Shown: positions 3,230 through 45,710 of the stretch, piece after piece
Layout: each line of letters begins with the position of its first letter
Position numbering within the stretch: the stretch's first letter is position 1
NCBI RefSeq assembly: GCF_003096075.1
Contig: NZ_CP015449.1
Span: 2,039,001 to 2,103,000 of the forward strand
Source: Dietzia lutea
GTDB lineage: Bacteria > Actinomycetota > Actinomycetes > Mycobacteriales > Mycobacteriaceae
Direction of reading: 5' to 3'
DNA length: 64,000 bases
The notes under the pieces: generated by a model
The model's database searches: none
Seen by the model: the letters and a program-made list of their open reading frames with translations, nothing else
Told to the model about the DNA's origin: nothing
Translations under genes and position numbers: made by a program

Positions 3230-3235
3230 TAGTCT
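3230..3235 (+). promoter_or_regulatory. -10 (TAGTCT) of the LppZ-like gene, leaderless
   Basis: TAGTCT ends 7 nt before the ATG at 3243, and no Shine-Dalgarno sequence lies between. It is the mirror partner of the DoxX promoter, with the two hexamers 41 bp apart. Confidence 0.5.
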
Positions 3236-3242
3236 GGTCGGC

Positions 3243-4268
3243 ATGAGATCGATCGCGCTCGTCCTGGCGCTCGCCGTCGCGGTGTCGGGCTGCGCGAGGT
3301 TCGACGATCGCCTCGAGGCCCCGTTCACGCCGGCACCGGGTCCGGGAGCGGGGGCCGCGCCGCCGCCGAGTGCGCCCGGCGCTCCGACTCCCCCGCCGAC
3401 CTCGCCCTCCGGGGCGCCCGAACCGCCACCCGAGACCGGCCCGTGCGTAGACCCGGACCCCGCGGTGATCGCCGCGTGTCTGGGTCCGGCCGTCGCCGTG
3501 GCGGGTCTGGGCGAGCGGGCGTTGGTCGCGGAGTCGACGGGTGCGGTGCGGATCGTCTCGCCGGACGCGGAGCCGGAGGATTTCGGGCGGGTGGATCCGC
3601 GGGGCGGTCGGGTGGCCGCGGTCGCGCCCTCCCCGGATTTCGCCCAGGACCGGTTGGTGTATCTCCTCGTCGTCGGCGATGGACCCACCCGCGTCGAGCG
3701 CCTGGCGCGCGGCGACGCTCCCCGCACGGTCGCGGAGCTCGCCCCCGCCGAGAGCGGCGGCCTCGCGTTCGTCGCGGACGTCCTCACCGTCGGTGTCGGG
3801 TCGGAGCTCGCGCGGTTCCCGTCGTACACGGGGATCGGGCGCGCCGAGCGACCCGAGGTGATCGGGCGCGATCTTGGTCGTATCCAGGCGCTGTGCGTCC
3901 ACGGCGACGAGGTGTACCTCTCCACCGTGACCGACCGCGGCGCCGCGCTCCGCGCCCCGGATCGGATGGTGTGGACGTGGCCGGACCAGCGTTCCGCGGG
4001 CGGGTGCGCCGCCGGCGAGGGGACGATGGCGATCGCACTCCCGGACGCCGAGCGCGTCGACACCCTGCAGACCGCCGGCGGTGCCGCGCGCGGTCAGCCC
4101 GAGGCCCTCGCGGAGGGGCGCTACGGGCGACTCACCGGGCTCACCGTGGTCGGCGAGGGCATCCTCCTGGCCGGGACCACCAACAAGGCCGGCGGCTCCC
4201 CTGTCGCGACCGACGACCGGGCGGTCATCCTGCCCGACTCCGGCGGCGGAGGCGACGCCCGCATGTGA
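3243..4268 (+). CDS. lppZ: LppZ-like lipoprotein, beta-propeller type
   Basis: The 341-residue product has a lipoprotein signal peptide ending in the lipobox VSGC (Cys18). A Pro/Gly/Ala-rich linker (about 25-65) follows, then repeated beta-strand segments that resemble PQQ-type sugar or sorbosone dehydrogenase propellers. It should be exported and lipid-anchored on the outer face of the membrane. The position next to the DoxX gene and before gatB matches lppZ (Rv3006) in M. tuberculosis, which is the main basis for the symbol. The substrate is unknown, and no catalytic site can be assigned from sequence alone. The start is the ATG 7 nt after TAGTCT. Confidence 0.7.
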   Translation: MRSIALVLALAVAVSGCARFDDRLEAPFTPAPGPGAGAAPPPSAPGAPTPPPTSPSGAPEPPPETGPCVDPDPAVIAACLGPAVAVAGLGERALVAESTGAVRIVSPDAEPEDFGRVDPRGGRVAAVAPSPDFAQDRLVYLLVVGDGPTRVERLARGDAPRTVAELAPAESGGLAFVADVLTVGVGSELARFPSYTGIGRAERPEVIGRDLGRIQALCVHGDEVYLSTVTDRGAALRAPDRMVWTWPDQRSAGGCAAGEGTMAIALPDAERVDTLQTAGGAARGQPEALAEGRYGRLTGLTVVGEGILLAGTTNKAGGSPVATDDRAVILPDSGGGGDARM

Positions 4269-5980: not shown

Positions 5981-7462
5981 CTAGCTGCAGGCAGCGATCA
6001 CCAATTCCTTCACGCGGGCCGGGTCGGCTTGTCCGCGGGTGGCCTTCATGACCGCACCGACGATCGCGCCGGCGGCCTGCACCTTGCCGGAGCGGATCTT
6101 GTCCGCGATGTCCGGCTGAGCAGCGAGCGCATCATCGACGGCCTTCTGGAGCGCGGAATCGTCGCGGACCACCTCGAGGCCCTTGTCCGCCACGATCTGA
6201 TCGGGCTCGCCCTCGCCGTCGAGGACCGCGTCGACGACCTGACGGCCCAGCTTGTTGGTGAGCTTGCCCTCGGCGACCAGCTCGATGACCCGCGCCAACT
6301 GCGCGGGCGTGATGGCGAGGGCGTCCAGCTCGACGCCCCGCTTGTTGGCCTGCTGTGTCAGGTAGGACACCCACCACGACCGGGCCTCGGCGGGCGGCGC
6401 GCCGGCGTCCACCGTGGCGAGGATGAGGTCCAGGGCGCCGGCGTTGACGAGATCGCGCATCTCCTCGTCCGACACGCCCCAGTCCGCCTGCACGCGCGCC
6501 CGACGCACCCACGGCAGCTCCGGCAGCGTCGCGCGGATCGACTCGATGAGCTCCTCCGTCGGCTCGACGGGCGCCAGGTCCGGCTCGGGGAAATAGCGGT
6601 AGTCCTCGGCCGACTCCTTCGGGCGACCGGCGGTCGTCGTGCCGTCCGACTCGTGGAAGTGCCGGGTCTCCAGGACGACCTCGCCGCCGGACTCGAGCAC
6701 GTCCGCCTGGCGGCACATCTCGTGGCGCACCGCGATCTCGACGCTGCGCAGTGAGTTGACGTTCTTGGTCTCGGTGCGGGTACCGAACTCGGTGGCGCCC
6801 TTGGGCATCAGTGAGACGTTCGCGTCGCAGCGCATCGACCCCTGATCCATCCGGACGTCGGATACGTCGAGGCTCTTGAGAAGGTCACGCAGTGCCGACA
6901 CGTAGGCGCGGGCGATCTCGGGGGCCCGCTCCCCCGCCCCGACGATCGGCTTGGAGACGATCTCGATGAGCGGCACGCCGGCACGGTTGAAGTCCAGCAG
7001 CGAGTGCGTGGCGCCGTGGATGCGGCCGGTCGCCGAGCCCACGTGCGTGGACTTCCCGGTGTCCTCTTCCATGTGGGCGCGCTCGATGTCCACCCGCCAG
7101 GTGGAGCCGTCCTCGAGCTGGACGTCGAGGTAGCCGTCGTGGGCGATCGGCTCGTCGTACTGCGAGATCTGGTAGTTCTTCGGCTGGTCCGGGTAGAAGT
7201 AGTTCTTCCGGGCAAACCGGCTGTACGGCGCGATCGAGCAGTTCAGCGCGAGACCGATCTTGATGGCCCACTCGACCGCCTGCCGGTTGGCGACCGGCAA
7301 CGCGCCCGGCAGGCCGATGCACACCGGACACACCTGCGTGTTGGGCTCGGCCCCGAACGCGGTCGGACACCCGCAGAACATCTTGGTGTTGGTGTGCAGC
7401 TCGACGTGCACCTCCATACCCATGACGGGATCGAAACGTGACACGACCTCGGTGAACTCCAT
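5981..7462 (-). CDS. gatB: Asp/Glu-tRNA amidotransferase subunit B
   Basis: GatB is the kinase/transfer subunit of GatCAB, which converts Glu-tRNA(Gln) and Asp-tRNA(Asn) to the amidated forms. The 493-residue protein begins [22 protein letters not shown], with the conserved GMEVHVEL start of the cradle domain. It shows the zinc-type cysteines CGCP and CPVC (about 32-51) and ends in the helical YqeY-like tail (KELVIAACS). The ATG at 7462 is 10 nt after the pfkA stop. No ribosome site is present; instead the TAG stop of pfkA belongs to TAGATT, a -10 ending 7 nt before the ATG. The gene lies in the same series as gatC and gatA but is separated from them by an MFS gene and pfkA. Confidence 0.96.
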
Positions 7463-7469
7463 GCCGAAC

Positions 7470-7475
7470 AATCTA
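7470..7475 (-). promoter_or_regulatory. -10 (TAGATT) of gatB, embedded in the pfkA stop codon
   Basis: The first three bases, TAG at 7475-7473, are the pfkA stop. The hexamer ends 7 nt before the gatB ATG, so a leaderless gatB mRNA is predicted in addition to any read-through. Confidence 0.5.
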
Positions 7476-8507
7476 GCCGAAGAGGCAGGCGGCCTCGCGG
7501 TAGCGGTCCTCCGGAACTGTCTTGAGCACCGACACGGCCTCCTCGACCGGCACCATCGCGATCGACTCCCCCCGCAAGGCGACGATCTGGCCGAAATCCC
7601 CGCGGTGCACGGCATGCGCCGCATGCACCCCGAACCGGGTCGCCAGATTGCGGTCGTAGGCGGTCGGCGTGCCGCCCCGCTGAATGTGGCCCAGCACCGT
7701 GGTGCGGACGTCGCGGTTCATGCGCTCACGGATCGCCGTCGCCATCTGGTCCGCGACCCCGGTGAAGACCTCGTGCCCGAACTGGTCGGTGCCACCCTCG
7801 CGCAGGGTCATTCCGGAGCCCTCGACGGGTGTCGCGCCCTCGGCGACCACGCAGATGCCGTAGGCCTCCCCCATCTGGAAGCGACGCTTCATCACCTTGC
7901 ACACGTAGTCGATGTCGAACGGGACCTCGGGGATCACGATCATGTGCGCCCCCGAGGCGAGCCCGGCGTGTAGAGCGATCCAGCCGGCATGACGGCCCAT
8001 CACCTCGACCAGCATCACCCGCTCGTGGGACTCCGCGGTCGTGTGCAGACGGTCGATGGCGTCCGAGGCGATCGACACGGCCGTGTCGAAGCCGAAGGTG
8101 TAGTCGGTGCCACCGACGTCGTTGTCGATGGTCTTGGGCACGCCCACCACGGGTATGCCGTTCTCGGTGAGCCACCGGGCGGCCTTGAGCGTACCGTCGC
8201 CGCCGATCGCCACCAGGGCGTCCAGGGCGTGCCGCTCGAGCGTCTGACGGATCTCCGGGAGGCTGGCCGTCAGAATGTCCGGGTTGAGTCGGCCGGTCCC
8301 GAGGATCGTGCCACCGCGGAGCAGGATGCGGTCGATGCCCTCGTCGTCGAACAGTGGGACCGCACGGTCCTCCACCACGCCGGACCACCCGTCCTGGAAG
8401 CCCAGGACCGGCGAGTCGTACTCGGAGTTGGCGGTGCGGACCAGGGCGCGGATCACCGCGTTGAGGCCGGGGCAGTCGCCGCCGGCGGTGAGGACACCTA
8501 TACGCAC
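7473..8507 (-). CDS. pfkA: 6-phosphofructokinase
   Basis: Phosphorylates fructose 6-phosphate in glycolysis. The 344-residue length matches actinobacterial Pfk. Visible motifs are the N-terminal [11 protein letters not shown] phosphate loop, GGDGT at 102-106, PKTIDND at 124-130 (catalytic Asp pair) and MGRHAGW. The Gly after GGD (Gly105) normally indicates ATP as donor, while Lys125 in PKTIDND is the residue found in PPi-dependent enzymes; this mixed state is usual for the actinobacterial branch, so ATP is likely but not certain. The GTG at 8507 has AGGAG 7 nt upstream. It follows the MFS gene (75-nt gap) and its TAG stop contributes to the gatB promoter. Confidence 0.94.
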
Positions 8508-22663: not shown

Positions 22664-24022
22664 GTGGCACCGGCATCGTTACCGCGCACCGTGCGGTCCC
22701 TGGTCGTCGCCGGGTTCGCCCTCGCCGTGGCCTCGGGCTGCGCGTCGGACACACCGAGCGGGGACGCCCGCCTCGGCCAGGCCGCGAGCTGGTCGTCGGT
22801 GGCCGGTGGCCCGCCGAACTCGTCTCGGGCGCACGCCGGGGTGTCGGACTCCCCCGAGCTCCTCTGGTCGCGCACGCTGGGCGCCCCGGCGATCGGGGTG
22901 GCCTCCTCCGACGGGATCGGCACCTCGTTCCAGGCGACGGTCTCCGAGCGCGGCTGTAACCTCTTCGCCCTCACCGCCGACGACGGCCGCAAGCGGTGGT
23001 GCTCGCGGATGCCGACGGACGGCCCGCGCATCACGGCGACGGTCGACGGGCGCGGCTCGCTGTTCGTGCCGGCGTACGGCGGGGTCGCGGCGGTGGCCGC
23101 CGAGGGTGAGAACCGGTGGTTCGCCGCTACCCGCGGCGTGCCGACCACCGTGACGTTGATGGACAACCGCCACCTGCTGCTCGTCTCCCACCTCGGGGTC
23201 GCTCGCGTCGTCAACGCCCACACGGGTCTGGACGTCACCCCCGAGCTGCGCATCACCGGCGACGTCGCGACGGACGACCCGGCCTACGGTCTGCCGTGGT
23301 GCGCCACCGGTGCGCGGGGATGTCCGGTGCCGGCGACCGCGGCCGTGGACACCGACGCGGCCACGGCGTACCTCACCGCGTGGACGCCGGGCACGGCGGA
23401 TCCGGAGCTGGTCGCCGTGCGGCTGGTCGGTGACGAGCGGCCCGCCCTGGAGGTCCTGTGGCGCGTCCCCCTGGCCGAGGGTCGGCTGGGCGTGCCGGTG
23501 GTCCTGTCGGGCGACCGGGACGAGGTCTACGTGCACGCCGCGGACGGCGCCCTCGCCGCGTACCGGGCGGCCGACGGCGCCGCCCTGTGGACGACGCCGG
23601 TCGGGTACCGCCCGGACGCCTCGCCGGCGTTGCTGCCCGACGGCACCCTGGTCACCGCGGGGCGCACGACGACCGTGTGGAGGGGTCCCGACGACGAGCA
23701 CGACGACGACGCGGGCCCGGCGCCCGTGGTGGCCGTCCGCCCGGTCGACGGGACCGGCCGCGAGGTCTGGCGCCGGGACGACCTGCAGCAGCTCACCAAC
23801 CCGGCCGCGACCCCGGACGGGCAGGTGGTCGTGGCCGTGCGCGCGGGCGGTGGCGGGGACGAGCCCGGCATCGCCGTGCACGTGCTCGACGGCGGCGACG
23901 GGCGGACCGTCCACCGGCTCGAGGTGCCCGCGGCATCGGGTCCCGTGTCGGGACTCAGCGTCGATTCGGACGGCCGGATCGCGCTGACGACCGCGATGGG
24001 CGCCGTCTACATGTTCGGCTGA
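22664..24022 (+). CDS. lipoprotein with PQQ-type beta-propeller repeats
   Basis: The 452-residue product has a lipoprotein signal peptide ending in VASGC (about residues 21-25) and a body of repeats in which DG or AADG turns precede a Trp (for example DDGRKRWCS and AADGAALWTTP), the pattern of PQQ/BamB-like propellers. It should be anchored on the outer face of the membrane; function is unknown. Rv3035 occupies the equivalent position in M. tuberculosis. The GTG start is chosen because GGGGGG lies 5 nt upstream and the signal peptide begins there; the frame is open further up. Its last 16 bp overlap the end of the converging methyltransferase gene. Confidence 0.72.
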   Translation: MAPASLPRTVRSLVVAGFALAVASGCASDTPSGDARLGQAASWSSVAGGPPNSSRAHAGVSDSPELLWSRTLGAPAIGVASSDGIGTSFQATVSERGCNLFALTADDGRKRWCSRMPTDGPRITATVDGRGSLFVPAYGGVAAVAAEGENRWFAATRGVPTTVTLMDNRHLLLVSHLGVARVVNAHTGLDVTPELRITGDVATDDPAYGLPWCATGARGCPVPATAAVDTDAATAYLTAWTPGTADPELVAVRLVGDERPALEVLWRVPLAEGRLGVPVVLSGDRDEVYVHAADGALAAYRAADGAALWTTPVGYRPDASPALLPDGTLVTAGRTTTVWRGPDDEHDDDAGPAPVVAVRPVDGTGREVWRRDDLQQLTNPAATPDGQVVVAVRAGGGGDEPGIAVHVLDGGDGRTVHRLEVPAASGPVSGLSVDSDGRIALTTAMGAVYMFG

Positions 24023-25236
24023 TCCCCGGCGGCCCGGGTCCGGGGCCCGCACACGAACACCACGGCCGACGTGCCGATGCGGGTGACCACCAGCGCCAGC
24101 GGCCGCGAACCCGACAGCGACAGCGAGCGACGCAGCACGTCCGGGTCGGTGTCGACGCCGCGCACGAGGATCTCCAGCGACCCGCAGTCCCGCGCGCGTA
24201 GGGCGCGACGCAGCTGCTTGCGGTCCAGCCGACACCGCTCGAGCACCTCGAACCCGCTGTGGCCCGGAGGGATCCGCGGCCCGGTCAGGTGCGCGATCCG
24301 CGGGTCGAGCTGGCGGAGCCCGTGCCTGCGGGCCCAGTGCCGCACGAGCCCCGCCCGGACGACCGCCCCGTCGGGATCCACGATGAACCGCTCGGGTTCG
24401 GGGTGGGCGTCGACCTCGTCGTCGTCGCCGTCGGTCACCTCCTCCACGTGCACGGCGACGCCGTCCGCGGTCAGGCGCGCCGGCCCCCACGGGCCCGGCG
24501 CCCCGGCGGCCGCGGTACGCACGACCGTCGCGCGGCGCCGCACGCCCCCCGACAGGCCCGGCGACCACAGGCAGGCCTCGCGTACCGAGCCGTCGAGGGA
24601 GACCAGCTCGACCTCGCCCTCGTGGCCGAGGGCGGACGTGTCGAGCCCGGGTGCGCACTTGATGACGTGGTCGCGGCCCGCGGCCCCGGCGAGGAGGTCC
24701 GGAAGCGGTGGGCTGAGTTGCGCCGGGTCGTGGATGCGGCGACCCCCGGCGCGGCGTGCGGGATCGGCCACCAGCACGGCCTCGCGGCTCGGCGGGGCGA
24801 GCGCGTCGGCGACGCACACCAGCGCCTCGGGCACGTTGTGGGCGGCCATCCGCGCGCGCACCGGGTCGAGGTCCGAGCCGATCACCCGGCCGGCCGTGCG
24901 GACGAGCTCGGTGAGCTCGGCGCCGACCGAGCACGTCACGTCGTGGACGTCCCGACCCGCCAGGCGCTCGGCACGGAGGGCCGCGACGGGCCAGGCCGTG
25001 GCCTGCTGCACGGCCTCGTCGGTGAGGAGCATCGCCCCCGCCCCGCGGATCCGGCCCCGCGCGCGGGCGCGGGCGGTGACGACGTCGATCGCCGCGGCCG
25101 CGTGCTCGGCGTCCGCGCGGCGGACGGTCGCCGTCGAGGACACGACGCACGCACGCGACCAGTCGAGGCCGGCGGCGAGGTCGATCAGGTCGCGGCCGGC
25201 GTCGGTGCGCAGGAAGTCCAGGTCCTCGGGGGTCAC
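24007..25236 (-). CDS. THUMP-like SAM-dependent methyltransferase
   Basis: The 409-residue protein has a class I methyltransferase core: DVTCSVGAE (about 113-121) as the SAM-binding loop, IGSDLDPVRARMAAHN as the acidic loop, and VLVADPARR in place of the catalytic NPP-type motif. The C-terminal THUMP-like domain ends in VFVCGPR. It matches Rv3037c in position. RNA is the likely substrate by family, but none is shown. The GTG at 25236 is 10 nt past the NUDIX stop with no ribosome site; TAACCT, which includes that TAA stop, ends 7 nt before it. The frame is open to 25299, but the NUDIX gene overlaps that region. Confidence 0.75.
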   Translation of the reverse strand: MTPEDLDFLRTDAGRDLIDLAAGLDWSRACVVSSTATVRRADAEHAAAAIDVVTARARARGRIRGAGAMLLTDEAVQQATAWPVAALRAERLAGRDVHDVTCSVGAELTELVRTAGRVIGSDLDPVRARMAAHNVPEALVCVADALAPPSREAVLVADPARRAGGRRIHDPAQLSPPLPDLLAGAAGRDHVIKCAPGLDTSALGHEGEVELVSLDGSVREACLWSPGLSGGVRRRATVVRTAAAGAPGPWGPARLTADGVAVHVEEVTDGDDDEVDAHPEPERFIVDPDGAVVRAGLVRHWARRHGLRQLDPRIAHLTGPRIPPGHSGFEVLERCRLDRKQLRRALRARDCGSLEILVRGVDTDPDVLRRSLSLSGSRPLALVVTRIGTSAVVFVCGPRTRAAGDQPNM

Positions 25237-25243
25237 CGCCGCA

Positions 25244-25249
25244 AGGTTA
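25244..25249 (-). promoter_or_regulatory. -10 (TAACCT) embedded in the NUDIX stop codon
   Basis: TAA at 25249-25247 is the NUDIX stop. The hexamer ends 7 nt before the methyltransferase GTG, predicting a leaderless transcript. Confidence 0.5.
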
Positions 25250-26050
25250 GTTCCCGCCGGGCGCGATGGCCCGCGGGGTGGCGAGGACCTCCGCGACATC
25301 CGAGGCGGACGCCAGATCCGACAGCACGTCGAGGGTCGGCCGGAGCATCCCGAGGTGGCCGAGGATGCCGGCTTGTGCCGCGTCGTCCGCGCGGATCCAC
25401 TCGGCGGCCCGGGCCTCGCTCGTCCCGCCGTCGGGTTCTGTCCCCTCCGGCAGCGCGGCCACGAAGAACAGCGTGTCGTAGCGCCGCGGCGGCCCGACCG
25501 GGGTCGTCCAGCGGTCCCACGGCCGCAGCAGGTGCGCGGACAGCACCAGGTCGTGCGCGGCCAGGAGTGAGTCGAGGTCGCCGTGCCCCGCGTCGAGCGC
25601 GCGCCGCTCGGCGACGCCGGGCGGGGCCGGGGGCGGGGGCGGTGCCGGTGACGTCGACAAGGGGGTGGCGCCCGCCGGCTCGGCGAGCAGGACGCCGGTC
25701 TCCTCGAACAGCTCGCGGGCGACCCCCCGGACGGCCGCGGCGGCGCGGTCGACGTCGATCCCGAACCGCTCGGCCCACCACTGCGGAGCGGGCCCGCGCC
25801 AGGGCCGCGTGCCGTGGTAGTCGCGCGGCTCCACCCCGCCGCCGGGGAAGACCGACATTCCGGCAGCGAACTGCATCGTCGACACGCGGTGCTGCAGGAA
25901 CACCTCGACTCCCCCGCCGACCCGGGCGTCGCGGATCAGCGCGACCGTCGCCGCCTCACGGATCGGCACCGCCCCCGGCTCATAGGCCGCAGGAGCGTCG
26001 CCGCCGCCCACCACGCGCGACGACCCGGACGAACCCGCCACCCCGGTCAT
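25247..26050 (-). CDS. NUDIX hydrolase
   Basis: The 267-residue protein hydrolyses a nucleoside-diphosphate-linked compound, substrate unknown. The Nudix box is split by an insertion: GGGV at about residue 70 and RELFEETGVLL about 40 residues later hold the metal-binding glutamates. The N-terminus is Ser/Gly-rich. A Pro run (PAPPPPPAPP) lies in a loop after the box. The ATG overlaps the ABC ATPase stop by 4 nt (ATGA, 26047-26050). Gene order matches Rv3040c-Rv3041c. Its TAA stop doubles as part of the next promoter. Confidence 0.85.
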   Translation of the reverse strand: MTGVAGSSGSSRVVGGGDAPAAYEPGAVPIREAATVALIRDARVGGGVEVFLQHRVSTMQFAAGMSVFPGGGVEPRDYHGTRPWRGPAPQWWAERFGIDVDRAAAAVRGVARELFEETGVLLAEPAGATPLSTSPAPPPPPAPPGVAERRALDAGHGDLDSLLAAHDLVLSAHLLRPWDRWTTPVGPPRRYDTLFFVAALPEGTEPDGGTSEARAAEWIRADDAAQAGILGHLGMLRPTLDVLSDLASASDVAEVLATPRAIAPGGN

Positions 26051-26880
26051 CCCCGTCGGTGCCGGCCCGATCGGCGGGCACGGCGGGCGAAGTAGCGGCC
26101 GTCGATCGCGTCGACCGTGATCGACTGCGCGAAGGCCCGGCTGAGGTTCTCGGAGGTGATCACGTCGTCGATGAGCCCCATGGCGGTCACCTCGCCCTCC
26201 GCCAGCAGCATGGCGTGGGTGAATCCCGGGGGGATCTCCTCGACGTGGTGGGTCACCAGGACCGTCGCGGGCGCGTCCGGGTCCATGGCCATGTCCCCGA
26301 GCCGGGCGACGAGATCCTCGCGGCCCCCGACGTCCAGTCCCGCTCCGGGCTCGTCGAGCAGCAGCAGCTCGGGGTCGGTCATCATGGCTCGCGCGATGAG
26401 CACGCGCTTGCGCTCGCCCTCCGAGAGGGTGCCCCACGTCCGGTCGGCGAGATGCTCGGCACCGATCGATTCGAGGGTGTCGGCGGCGCGGGCGAAGTCC
26501 TGCTCGTCGTACTTCTCCCGCCACCGACCCAGGACCGCGTACCCGGCCGAGATGACGAGATCGCTCACCACCTCGTCGCCGGGGATCCGGCCCGCGACGG
26601 CGACCGACGACAGGCCGACCCGGCTGCGCAGCTCGGTCACCTCCGTCCGACCGAGCTGTTCGCCGAGGACGACCGCGGTGCCGGTGCTCGGGTACTCCAA
26701 CGCCGAGGCGATCCTCAGCAGCGAGGTCTTGCCCGCGCCGTTGGGGCCGAGTACCACCCACCTCTCGTCGAGTTCGACCTGCCAGGTCAGTGGCCCCACG
26801 AGGGTCTTGTCGTCCCGCCGGAGCGAGACGTCACGCAGGTCGAGAACGAGGTCGGGGTCGATGTCGATGGCGGTGCTCAC
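26047..26880 (-). CDS. ABC transporter ATP-binding protein
   Basis: A stand-alone ATPase of 277 residues with Walker A GPNGAGKTS, Q-loop-region residues, the signature LSEGERKR (an E replaces the usual G in LSGG), Walker B LLLLDEPGAGLD and the switch His in VTHHVEE. The degenerate signature and the lack of a permease gene nearby suggest either a partner elsewhere or a non-transport role like that of the ModF/YlmA-type ATPases. The frame also allows ATG 26889; GTG 26880 is preferred because TTAGAT ends 7 nt before it and the ATG overlaps that hexamer. It corresponds to Rv3041c. Confidence 0.82.
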   Translation of the reverse strand: MSTAIDIDPDLVLDLRDVSLRRDDKTLVGPLTWQVELDERWVVLGPNGAGKTSLLRIASALEYPSTGTAVVLGEQLGRTEVTELRSRVGLSSVAVAGRIPGDEVVSDLVISAGYAVLGRWREKYDEQDFARAADTLESIGAEHLADRTWGTLSEGERKRVLIARAMMTDPELLLLDEPGAGLDVGGREDLVARLGDMAMDPDAPATVLVTHHVEEIPPGFTHAMLLAEGEVTAMGLIDDVITSENLSRAFAQSITVDAIDGRYFARRARRSGRHRRG

Positions 26881-33778: not shown

Positions 33779-33784
33779 TAACGT
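33779..33784 (+). promoter_or_regulatory. -10 (TAACGT) of the epimerase gene, leaderless
   Basis: TAACGT ends 7 nt before the ATG at 33792. Confidence 0.5.
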
Positions 33785-33791
33785 GGCAGGT

Positions 33792-34262
33792 ATGACCACT
33801 ACCCCAATCGGCCAACCCCTGCTGCCCTCCGAGCTCGTCGTGGCGATCGACCATGTCGGCGTGGCGGTACCCGACTTCGACGCCGCGGTGACGTGGTACC
33901 GCGACAACCTGGGCATGGAGAACCTCCACGAGGAGGTCAACGAGGAGCAGGGCGTGCGCGAGGCGATGCTCGGCTCCCCCGGTCGCCCCGAGGGCAGCGC
34001 CCTGCTCCAGATCCTCGCACCGCTCGACGAGACGTCGACCATCGCCAAGTTCATCGACCGCAACGGGCCCGGTATCCAGCAGATGGCGGTCCGTGTCACC
34101 GACATCGACGCGATCACCGGGCACCTCACCGGCCGCGGCGTCCGGGTCCTGTACCCCGCGCCCAAGCGGGGCACGGCGGACTCCCGCATCAACTTCGTGC
34201 ACCCGAAGGACGCGGGCGGCGTGCTGCTCGAACTGGTCGAGCCCGCCGCCGACCAGCACTAG
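33792..34262 (+). CDS. mce: methylmalonyl-CoA epimerase
   Basis: Interconverts the R and S forms of methylmalonyl-CoA in propionate metabolism. The 156-residue protein has the glyoxalase/VOC fold with two beta-alpha-beta-beta-beta units; metal ligands are likely His in AIDHVGVAV, a mid His/Gln region (GPGIQQMAVRV) and the final Glu in GVLLELVEP. It matches Rv1322A in position. The start ATG lies 7 nt after TAACGT; GCAGG directly before it is too close to act as a ribosome site. Confidence 0.93.
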   Translation: MTTTPIGQPLLPSELVVAIDHVGVAVPDFDAAVTWYRDNLGMENLHEEVNEEQGVREAMLGSPGRPEGSALLQILAPLDETSTIAKFIDRNGPGIQQMAVRVTDIDAITGHLTGRGVRVLYPAPKRGTADSRINFVHPKDAGGVLLELVEPAADQH

Positions 34263-43097: not shown

Positions 43098-43904
43098 CTA
43101 GTGGTTCTCCGCGTGGAGCGCGCTGTCGATGTAGACGGCGACCAGCAGCGCGAAGATGTACGCCTGCAGGAAGATCACCAGGAGCTCGAACAGCGTGAAC
43201 GCGATCGACAGCAGGGAGATGCCGGCGGACAGGACGGTCCAGCCGTTGAGCTGCCAGAAGAAGAAGTTCGACGCGCTGAACAGCAGGACCAGGATGAGGT
43301 GCCCCGCGAGCATGTTGGCCATGAGTCGGATGGTCAGCGTGGCGGGCCGCAGGAGGAACGTCGAGACCAGCTCGATCGGGACCACCAGCAGGTGCAGCGC
43401 CGGCGGCAGGTTGGGGATCACGACGCTCGCCTTGATGAAGCGCGCGAAGCCGAAGCGCTTGGATCCCGCGTAGATGAAGGTGATGTACCCCAGGAGGGCG
43501 AGGACCAGCGGGAAGCCGATCCGTGCGTTCGGCGAGATGTTCAATCCCGGAATGATCGCGGGCAGGTTCATCGCCACCACCGCGAAGAAGATCGTCGCGA
43601 TGATCGGCAGGAAGCGACGTCCCTGCTCCTTGCCGAGGATCTCCTCCGAGACGTGCACGCGGACGAAGTCGAGGCAGATCTCGGCGACGTTCTGCACGCC
43701 GCGCGGGACGAGCTTCGGGTTGCGCATGGCGATCACGAAGAAGGCCAGCAGCACGACCGCCATGAGAAGACGCACCAGCATGAGCCGGTCCAGGGTGAAG
43801 GCACCGCCTGCGAAGTCCGTCAGCCACTTGTCGACAGGGAAGAACTCCTTGTCGATATTCGGGGGATGGAACTCGCCTTCGAAGGCCAGAAGCGTGGTAC
43901 TCAG
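43098..43904 (-). CDS. atpB: ATP synthase a subunit (CTG start)
   Basis: The proton channel of Fo. Five or six membrane helices are visible; the essential Arg is in LTIRLMANMLAGHL. The first in-frame ATG (43781) would remove the conserved Corynebacterium-type N-terminus (GEFHPPNIDKEFFPVDKWL), and no ATG, GTG or TTG precedes it in this frame. A CTG at 43902-43904 lies 6 nt after GGGGAG (43911-43916) and restores it, giving 268 residues starting STTLLAFEGEF. CTG initiation is therefore inferred. The gene heads the atpBEFHAGDC operon. Confidence 0.9.
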   Translation of the reverse strand: MSTTLLAFEGEFHPPNIDKEFFPVDKWLTDFAGGAFTLDRLMLVRLLMAVVLLAFFVIAMRNPKLVPRGVQNVAEICLDFVRVHVSEEILGKEQGRRFLPIIATIFFAVVAMNLPAIIPGLNISPNARIGFPLVLALLGYITFIYAGSKRFGFARFIKASVVIPNLPPALHLLVVPIELVSTFLLRPATLTIRLMANMLAGHLILVLLFSASNFFFWQLNGWTVLSAGISLLSIAFTLFELLVIFLQAYIFALLVAVYIDSALHAENH

Positions 43905-44092: not shown

Positions 44093-44539
44093 TCAGGGGA
44101 CGGTCGGTTCGACGTATGGCGTCCGGGTCTTGAGCACGGCCCACGTCTCCCCCGCGAGCACCACCACCAGCGCGGCGATGATCGTCACCCCGAAGGACGT
44201 GTGCGAATAGAAGTCGAACTGTGCGAGCCCGGCGACCACGCCCATGGCCACGAGGAGCTTGAGGAGCCAGGTGCCCAGCACGACCGCCGCGGTGGTCTGC
44301 GGCGCCGAGCGCGCGGTGGCGATGACGACGATAGCGGTGGTGAGGACGAACGCCCCGCCGATGCCGGCGCCCATCAGAGCACCCCACAGTCCGGGCAGAC
44401 CGTCGACGAGCGCCCAGACGATCGCGCTGACGACGGCGAGTACGGCCAGGGCCAGGACGCCGAACCGGACCGCCTTGCGCAACGCGGCGGTGTGCGGGCT
44501 CTCGGCGGGACGGTCGTCGGGCGCGGACGCATCAGTCAT
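44093..44539 (-). CDS. AtpI-like protein (ATP synthase I)
   Basis: The 148-residue membrane protein has about four helices (FGVLALAVLAVVSAIVWALV, AFVLTTAIVVIAT and others) and a polar N-terminus. It precedes atpB as AtpI does in many bacteria and as Rv1303 does in M. tuberculosis; AtpI helps assemble the c ring. The ATG at 44539 is 10 nt past the wecA stop, with no ribosome site; TAGGCT, whose TAG is that stop, ends 7 nt upstream. Confidence 0.75.
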   Translation of the reverse strand: MTDASAPDDRPAESPHTAALRKAVRFGVLALAVLAVVSAIVWALVDGLPGLWGALMGAGIGGAFVLTTAIVVIATARSAPQTTAAVVLGTWLLKLLVAMGVVAGLAQFDFYSHTSFGVTIIAALVVVLAGETWAVLKTRTPYVEPTVP

Positions 44540-44546
44540 GGGGTGC

Positions 44547-44552
44547 AGCCTA
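44547..44552 (-). promoter_or_regulatory. -10 (TAGGCT) embedded in the wecA stop codon
   Basis: TAG at 44552-44550 is the wecA stop. The hexamer ends 7 nt before the atpI-like ATG, predicting a leaderless transcript. Confidence 0.5.
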
Positions 44553-45710
44553 GCCGGACGCGGTCTCCCCCCCCGTGTGGTGTTGCGCCCGGGAGCTGCG
44601 GAGGCGCGGCACCAGGGTCGCGGCCAGCACGGAGAGCAACCCGGCGGCGACCAGCGGCACGATCACCTCTGTGGGCAGCATGGTCGCGCCCACGGCGCCG
44701 AAGGCGATGAGCGAGACCCACGCGTAGATCACCAGGGCGACGCGGCGGTGGGAGTGCCCCAGTGCGAGGAGACGGTGGTGGAGGTGCATCTTGTCGGGCG
44801 CGAACGGGCTGCGCCCCGCCCCGACACGGCGGACCACCGCCATGACGAGGTCGAGGACGGGGACGAACATCGCCGCGGCCACGACGATCACCGGCGAGAG
44901 CAGCACGATCATCTCCTGTGGCCCGTACAGGCTCTGCGAAATCTTCCCCGACGCACTGGTGGAGGCCGCGGCGAGCACCAGCCCGATGAGCATCGACCCG
45001 GAGTCGCCCATGAAGATCCGCGCGGGCTGGAAGTTGTGTGGCAGGAAGCCCAGGAGCGCGCCGGCGAGCACGGCGGTGACGAGCGCCGGCGGGTAGGCGC
45101 CCACCGTCCCGCCCTGGTCGAGCATGATGCCCACGGAGAACACGCAGATGGCGAGCGCGGCGATCGCGCCGAGGCCGGCGGCGAGCCCGTCGAGCCCGTC
45201 GACGAAGTTCATCGCGTTGACGATCGCCAGCGTGAACACGACGGTGAGCAGCCCGGCCTGCAGCTGGTCAAGGACGAGGATGTTGCCGTCGCCGAACGGC
45301 AGGTACACGAGGGTCCACGACACGCCCATGGCGACCAGGACGCCGGCGGCCGCGGCTTGACCGGCGAGTTTGGTGACGGCGCCGAGGCCGAGGATGTCGT
45401 CGACGATCCCCACCAGGACGATGACGCCGCCGGCGATGATGGTGGCCTCGACGTCGGGCGCGAAGGGCGGGAACGCGCGGTTCAGGGCCGGCAGCTGCGC
45501 GGCGAGGTAGACGGCGACGAGCATCCCGGTGAAGACGCCCACCCCGCCGAGCCGGGGGGTGGGCACGACGTGCACGTCGCGCTCACGGGGGTACGCCAAC
45601 CCGCCGATGGCGGGTGCCACTCCCCTGACCAGCCCGGTCACGACGAAGGTGACGAGGCCGGCGGTGGCGCCGATGAGCAGGAGCTCCCGGAACGGGATCC
45701 CGATGCCCAC
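44550..45710 (-). CDS. wecA: undecaprenyl-phosphate GlcNAc-1-phosphate transferase WecA
   Basis: Transfers GlcNAc 1-phosphate to the C55/C50 lipid carrier, the first step of the linker between arabinogalactan and peptidoglycan in mycolic-acid bacteria. The 386-residue protein has about eleven membrane helices. MraY/WecA motifs are visible: DDILGLGA, NFVDGLDGLAAG (metal Asp), IFMGDSGSM and HLHHRLLALGHSHR. It starts at GTG, 3 nt after tsaC. It matches Rv1302 (rfe). Confidence 0.93.
   Translation of the reverse strand: MGIGIPFRELLLIGATAGLVTFVVTGLVRGVAPAIGGLAYPRERDVHVVPTPRLGGVGVFTGMLVAVYLAAQLPALNRAFPPFAPDVEATIIAGGVIVLVGIVDDILGLGAVTKLAGQAAAAGVLVAMGVSWTLVYLPFGDGNILVLDQLQAGLLTVVFTLAIVNAMNFVDGLDGLAAGLGAIAALAICVFSVGIMLDQGGTVGAYPPALVTAVLAGALLGFLPHNFQPARIFMGDSGSMLIGLVLAAASTSASGKISQSLYGPQEMIVLLSPVIVVAAAMFVPVLDLVMAVVRRVGAGRSPFAPDKMHLHHRLLALGHSHRRVALVIYAWVSLIAFGAVGATMLPTEVIVPLVAAGLLSVLAATLVPRLRSSRAQHHTGGETASG

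What the first reader, a model, noticed from the sequence alone, without database searches (positions are those of the whole stretch)
7462..7475. Stop codon doubles as part of a -10 box: pfkA/gatB, one of three identical layouts
gatB has no ribosome site. The pfkA stop TAG (7475-7473) begins TAGATT, which ends 7 nt before the gatB ATG. The gap between stop and start is exactly 10 nt. The same geometry (TAA or TAG stop, TAnnnT hexamer, 7-nt spacer, start) occurs at 25236-25249 and 44539-44552. Most genes in this window end in TGA, so a TAG/TAA stop at each of these junctions, with a T at hexamer position 6, is notable. It suggests a compact gene-junction type in which termination of one gene and leaderless initiation of the next share sequence.
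Basis: partly seen in the sequence, partly recalled or inferred. Interest (0 to 1): 0.75.

Follow-up and report, generated by a model that had tools for sequence, protein, structure and literature searches.

The report
Stop codon doubling as next promoter
In this actinobacterium some genes end in a stop codon that also looks like the first half of the next gene's promoter; counts and comparisons between species support a real gene-junction type, but no RNA has been measured.

Summary
The window is Dietzia (GatB identical to D. cinnamea). In a 1.904 Mb sample of the 3.912 Mb genome, a gene caller blind to start signals gave 1120 same-strand junctions. Of 12 with a gap of exactly 10 nt, 11 end in TAA/TAG and 10 form TANNNT; overall 191 of 1120 upstream stops are TAA/TAG. 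Stop-as-box junctions with gaps 9-11 number 19, against 1.97 in permutations. It was not seen in a Cupriavidus megaplasmid (0 of 279) or a Rhodococcus plasmid (0 of 255).

Junction 3 (before an atpB-linked gene) keeps TAGGCT in 21 of 22 Dietzia genomes with the gene. Junction 1 (pfkA/gatB) has TAGATT in 20 of 22; basal Dietzia and other genera have a separate gatB box. Junction 2 is weaker: full box in 9 of 15 close relatives including its own genome.

Best reading: leaderless promoters whose -10 box is the upstream stop codon, a new variant of known leaderless architecture. Transcription starts are unmeasured.

The parts
7473..8507 (-). upstream gene of junction 1: 6-phosphofructokinase (pfkA), stop TAG at 7475-7473
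   Evidence: Pfam PFK E 6.9e-104; gene
7470..7475 (-). junction 1 shared hexamer TAGATT: pfkA stop plus inferred -10 box of gatB
   Evidence: same motif in 20 of 22 Dietzia genomes with a gatB match
7463..7469 (-). junction 1 spacer, 7 nt (GTTCGGC)
5981..7462 (-). gatB; inferred leaderless start ATG at 7462-7460
   Evidence: Pfam GatB_N and GatB_Yqey; start chosen without motifs
25247..26050 (-). upstream gene of junction 2, function unclear, stop TAA at 25249-25247
   Evidence: gene; only a weak NUDIX match, obtained on the longer ORF 25247-26761
25244..25249 (-). junction 2 shared hexamer TAACCT
   Evidence: T at position 6 in 9 of 15 Dietzia loci compared
25237..25243 (-). junction 2 spacer, 7 nt
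24007..25236 (-). downstream gene of junction 2, THUMP-like domain protein, start GTG at 25236-25234 (an in-frame ATG exists further upstream at 25299)
   Evidence: Pfam Thump_like E 4.6e-17
44550..45710 (-). upstream gene of junction 3, glycosyl transferase family 4 (WecA/Rfe-like; that name is recalled), stop TAG at 44552-44550
   Evidence: Pfam Glycos_transf_4 E 3.6e-35
44547..44552 (-). junction 3 shared hexamer TAGGCT
   Evidence: identical in 21 of 22 Dietzia loci found; the 22nd, G012, differs
44540..44546 (-). junction 3 spacer, 7 nt (6 nt in two relatives)
44093..44539 (-). downstream gene of junction 3, 148 aa, no Pfam match; called AtpI-like here only from its place before atpB (43098-43781)
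   Evidence: no family; ATP-synt_A match for 43098-43781

Best explanation
These are junctions at which a leaderless transcription unit begins immediately behind a co-directional gene, and the upstream gene's TAA/TAG stop is the first half of the -10 box (TANNNT) of the housekeeping-type promoter. RNA polymerase would open the DNA at the hexamer and start at the first base of the next start codon, 6-8 nt later; a ribosome would then load on the 5' AUG/GUG without a Shine-Dalgarno. The same letters stop ribosomes on the upstream message. The layout is the tightest packing that keeps the box out of sense codons, where TANNNT is depleted. Shown: geometry, genome-wide excess, preference for TAA/TAG, T at position 6, conservation at junction 3, replacement of a separate gatB box in crown Dietzia. 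Inferred: that RNA starts there, that SigA reads the box, that the spared DNA or the link between the genes is what is selected.
For: (a) 19 stop-as-box junctions in 1120 same-strand pairs against 1.97 expected; 51% (19 of 37) of junctions with gaps 9-11 carry a box, against 3 of 107 at gaps 0-8 and 2 of 55 at gaps 12-23. (b) A leaderless signature exists here: TANNNT at spacers 6-8 precedes 206 of 1706 called starts, against 9 of 1706 at control spacers 12-14; raw DNA shows the same peak without gene calls. (c) T at position 6 in 19 of 23 TAA/TAG stops with gap 9-11, against 20 of 138 with longer gaps. (d) Among 64 called genes with a TAA/TAG-type box and a same-strand upstream gene, the upstream stop coincides with the box in 19 and lies beyond it in 2; a random reading frame predicts one third (p 8e-8). 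(e) Junction 3: TAGGCTG is the only run of invariant columns in a 43-column alignment of 21 loci, the stop hexamer having been found independently by translation. (f) gatB: 59 of 60 non-crown relatives scored have TANNNT 6-8 nt before an ATG. (g) G023 and G024: 4 and 5 cases, expected 0.38 and 0.80.
Against: No RNA data. Cupriavidus CH34 (0 of 279) behaves as a negative control, but Rhodococcus plasmid pRHL1 (0 of 255), expected to be positive, also had none; its leaderless peak is weak (17 of 395 starts at spacers 6-8) and its gene calls cover only 71%. Junction 2 lacks T at position 6 in 6 of 15 relatives. At junction 1 the flanks are nearly invariant too, so conservation there is not a footprint. 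Keeping TAG is not special: a control stop without a box kept TAG in 14 of 15. The built-in reversed-pattern control showed no excess (205 against 228); I judge it unsuitable, as its composition differs, but it is a result against. Absence of Shine-Dalgarno is partly mechanical, as the box fills the same place. The one-third frame expectation is too strict if long gene overlaps are selected against.
Confidence: 0.8

Rival explanations
1. By-product: leaderless promoters are common, their -10 boxes are almost the only TAA/TAG near gene starts in a GC-rich genome, so an upstream gene that drifts into the promoter is stopped there. The promoter is real but the sharing itself is not selected.
For: TGA is 1344 of 1678 stops and the genome is 71% G+C, so any TAA/TAG in frame will end a gene. 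At gatB the shared state arose within Dietzia and the ancestral box stood apart.
Against: Random frame predicts about one shared junction for two in which the upstream gene reads through the box; observed 19 and 2, pooled over three genomes 28 and 5. TAC/TAT boxes, which cannot stop a gene, have an upstream stop within 12 nt in 4 of 49, against 19 of 64 for TAA/TAG boxes (Fisher p 0.005). Selection against boxes inside sense codons could, however, explain this without any use for the sharing.
Confidence: 0.45
2. Termination-reinitiation: the 10-nt gap serves ribosomes that finish the upstream gene and restart on the next one; the hexamer is not a promoter.
For: Stops and starts 9-11 nt apart without Shine-Dalgarno are close enough for reinitiation (general knowledge; PMC4633059 passages, describe reinitiation at close junctions).
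Against: It does not predict TAA/TAG rather than TGA, nor T at position 6, nor a gatB box at the same distance where pfkA ends elsewhere. It may still act on read-through mRNA alongside the promoter.
Confidence: 0.1
3. Chance: TAA/TAG stops with a T three bases on happen to lie 10 nt before a start.
Against: Permutation maximum 8 against 19 observed; repeated in two other genomes.
Confidence: 0.03

Closest known systems
Leaderless mRNA genes of Actinobacteria with a TANNNT -10 box (M. tuberculosis, PMC3898074; mycobacteria, PMC4633059; C. glutamicum, PMC3890552; survey, PMC3160421; passages read)
   Same: TANNNT box 6-8 nt before RTG, no 5-mer Shine-Dalgarno in 206 of 206 boxed genes, either box or Shine-Dalgarno.
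   Different: [quoted passage not shown] The passages I read do not describe this.
Sub-operon or internal promoters (565 sub-operons in C. glutamicum, PMC3890552, passages read)
   Same: A promoter between two co-directional genes so close that read-through is likely.
   Different: Defined by measured starts, which are lacking here; no shared stop codon is part of that definition.
Stop-start overlap junctions (ATGA, 4-nt overlap; 'coupled' ORFs of PMC4633059)
   Same: Letters shared between the end of one gene and the start of the next.
   Different: There the stop overlaps the start codon and the link is translational; 221 of 1120 pairs here are of that kind. In the present type the stop overlaps a promoter element, and stops are TAA/TAG, not TGA.

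Membership tests
Leaderless gene with SigA-type promoter | TANNNT box at 6-8 nt before the start codon | tested here: met
   All three junctions; spacer peak genome-wide
Leaderless gene with SigA-type promoter | ATG or GTG start | tested here: met
   ATG, GTG, ATG; 9 ATG and 10 GTG among the 19
Leaderless gene with SigA-type promoter | no Shine-Dalgarno | tested here: met
   5-mers in 0 of 19, a 4-mer in 1 of 19; partly mechanical because the box fills the site
Leaderless gene with SigA-type promoter | transcript 5' end at the first base of the start codon | not testable with these tools
Leaderless gene with SigA-type promoter | conserved box across relatives | tested here: inconclusive
   junction 3 met (21 of 22 Dietzia); junction 1 kept in 20 of 22 but flanks equally conserved, with a separate box in outgroups; junction 2 in 9 of 15
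Sub-operon (internal promoter) | measured start inside a co-transcribed unit | not testable with these tools
   no RNA data
Translationally coupled stop-start overlap | stop and start codons overlap | tested here: not met
   gap 10 nt at all three

The most novel reading that the evidence does not exclude
In GC-rich actinobacteria with many leaderless genes, the choice between TGA and TAA/TAG at tightly packed junctions is dictated by the next gene's promoter: one hexamer is under joint selection as terminator of translation and initiator of transcription, and gives the downstream gene two modes, reinitiation on read-through mRNA and leaderless initiation from its own start.
Probability: 0.35. 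Interest if true: 0.7.

Novelty: new variant of a known kind. Interest (0 to 1): 0.52.

Why it matters
If transcription starts there, stop-codon choice in such genomes is partly a promoter property, gene-start and operon predictors can use the stop as evidence for a new transcription unit, and a single-base swap (TAG to TGA) separates the two functions, which makes the idea easy to test. It also says how densely a bacterial genome can pack independent transcription units: about 39 such junctions would be expected in this genome if the sampled 49% is typical (extrapolated).

Tried and rejected
Chance as a general account: rejected by permutation. 'Exactly 10 nt' as the defining rule: replaced by 9-11. 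Keeping TAG across species as evidence in itself: rejected, since a control stop without a box kept TAG in 14 of 15. Conservation of TAGATT among the 10 named Dietzia gatB loci as a footprint: rejected, flanks are nearly invariant. A zone without stops 1-12 nt from boxes in Dietzia: not general, since G023 has such cases. Prior description: nine completed full-text searches listed no title or abstract start that describes a stop codon forming a -10 box; I saw only listings plus passages of eight papers, no whole text and no supplements, so absence from print is not shown. Four further shared junctions were meant to be compared across the genus; the searches ran but no DNA could be cut out, so 16 of the 19 junctions were not tested for conservation.

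Full report
What is there. On the minus strand three junctions read stop, three bases ending in T, seven bases, start: TAG ATT GTTCGGC ATG (7475-7460), TAA CCT TGCGGCG GTG (25249-25234) and TAG GCT GCACCCC ATG (44552-44537). The genes are pfkA/gatB; an unassigned gene/THUMP-like protein; and a glycosyl transferase family 4 protein/a 148-aa protein without Pfam match that lies before atpB. GatB is 100% identical to that of Dietzia cinnamea NBRC 102147; the genome is one of 23 held for its genus.

How it was counted. A codon-usage caller without any start motif gave 1760 genes (a second version with other training gave the same counts) and 1120 same-strand neighbouring pairs. Stops are TGA 1344, TAG 265, TAA 69.

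Is it more than chance? Twelve pairs have a gap of exactly 10; 11 end in TAA/TAG and 10 of these form TANNNT. Over gaps 9-11, 23 of 37 end in TAA/TAG against 191 of 1120 overall, and position 6 is T in 19 of 23, against 20 of 138 for TAA/TAG stops with gaps of 12 or more. The 19 compare with a permutation mean of 1.97 and maximum of 8 in 10,000. By gap class the share of junctions with a box at spacer 6-8 is: overlap 4 of 279, 0-8 3 of 107, 9-11 19 of 37, 12-23 2 of 55, 24-60 28 of 155, 61-200 44 of 333, over 200 13 of 154. The whole-genome pattern count (205, against 228 for the reversed pattern) shows no excess; that control has another composition, and with spacer as the control the peak is clear: TA[AG]nnT before ATG 37 and 42 times at spacers 6 and 7, against 1 to 13 at the 24 other spacers from 0 to 25.

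Leaderless signature. TANNNT stands 6, 7 or 8 nt before 106, 82 and 18 of 1706 called starts, 206 in all, against 9 of 1706 at spacers 12-14. None of 206 has a Shine-Dalgarno 5-mer, though the box occupies part of that site. For comparison 75 of 221 pairs with a 4-nt overlap, and 3 of 18 other pairs with gaps 9-11, have one. Published start maps describe the same box and spacing for leaderless genes of M. tuberculosis (26% of genes with a primary start; PMC3898074, passages) and 33% leaderless mRNAs in C. glutamicum (PMC3890552, passages).

Why at the stop? TANNNT occurs 500 times in 1.63 Mb of called coding sequence, against about 1600 expected when codons are shuffled within genes, in line with the depletion reported for M. 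tuberculosis in all three frames (PMC10653884, passages). A stop codon is the one place at a gene's end where TAA/TAG is free. Of 64 called genes with a TAA/TAG-type box and a same-strand upstream gene, 19 have the upstream stop exactly on the box and 2 beyond it; random frame predicts one third (p 8e-8). With G023 and G024 the figures are 28 and 5 (p 1.5e-9). For TAC/TAT boxes an upstream stop lies within 12 nt in 4 of 49, for TAA/TAG boxes in 19 of 64 (p 0.005). I regard the frame test as suggestive only, because long overlaps are themselves disfavoured.

Conservation. Junction 3: 22 of 23 Dietzia genomes gave a match; 21 have the upstream stop hexamer TAGGCT with a spacer of 7 (19) or 6 (2), while G012 has TGA and another arrangement. 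In a 43-column alignment of the 21 (20 distinct), the seven columns TAGGCTG are the only invariant ones (loci were located there with the hexamer, but derived it from translation alone). Stops nearby behave otherwise: atpB TAG 17, TAA 4 with varied next bases; the 148-aa gene TGA 20, TAA 1. Junction 1: the motif is in 20 of 23 Dietzia genomes; of the other three, G022 gave no gatB match, and G012 and G018 have pfkA ending at the same residue with TGA, then a separate TAAGAT or TACGAT 7 nt before an ATG, and a GatB longer by 12 or 7 residues. Of 70 named loci outside the 10 fused Dietzia ones, 60 gave a PfkA match and 59 of these have TANNNT 6-8 nt before an ATG, none with the stop on the box; in 29 of the 60 that stop lies within about 110 nt. 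So a leaderless-type gatB start is old, and the shared form arose once within Dietzia, either by fusion of the old box to the gene end or by a new box at the stop; I cannot tell which. Junction 2: in 15 close loci, including its own genome, the stop is TAA/TAG with gap 9-11 in all, but T at position 6 in only 9; G018 has TGA with gap 5, G012 no upstream match, G001 only a partial locus. Junction 2 may be weak or lost in part of the genus.

Other genomes. G023 (same family, 400 kb): 4 of 215 pairs, expected 0.38; G024 (same family, 400 kb): 5 of 249, expected 0.80; p 0.0002 each. Cupriavidus metallidurans CH34 megaplasmid (500 kb, no leaderless spacer peak): 0 of 279. Rhodococcus jostii plasmid pRHL1 (450 kb): 0 of 255, with a weak spacer peak of 17 of 395 starts and coding coverage of 0.71. 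The rates in the three positive genomes are 1.7, 1.9 and 2.0%; at 1.7% one would expect 4 to 5 in each negative, so these are modest controls, and the plasmid result limits generality.

Function of the pairs. The 19 join genes without obvious shared role, e.g. a BCCT transporter and methionyl-tRNA synthetase, or pfkA and gatB, as expected if each downstream gene opens its own unit; with 9-11 nt there is no room for a hairpin terminator, so upstream transcripts probably run through (inference).

Verdict. Junctions 1 and 3 are most likely leaderless promoters whose -10 box is the preceding stop codon; junction 2 probably in this species. The type is real as a sequence pattern; its working is inferred. 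It extends known leaderless architecture rather than founding a new system.

Noticed in passing
window 3230-3245 (+) and 33779-33794 (+): Two more TANNNT-N7-ATG starts (TAGTCT, TAACGT) not joined to an upstream same-strand stop; ordinary leaderless candidates.
   Followed up: no
window 7462 and loci L071, L074, L084, L290, L291: GatB of crown Dietzia lacks the 7-12 N-terminal residues of relatives; its ATG matches an internal position, in some relatives an internal ATG.
   Followed up: partly
own-genome sample: In Dietzia upstream stops almost never lie 1-12 nt from a leaderless box unless they coincide with it; G023 does not show this. Unexplained.
   Followed up: partly
G019, contig C101 near 1941-2351: The 148-aa gene before atpB reads with one internal TGA in this relative; sequence error or decay not examined.
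   Followed up: no
own-genome sample: 221 of 1120 same-strand pairs overlap by 4 nt, all with TGA, and overlapping pairs carry a -10-like box in only 4 of 279.
   Followed up: no
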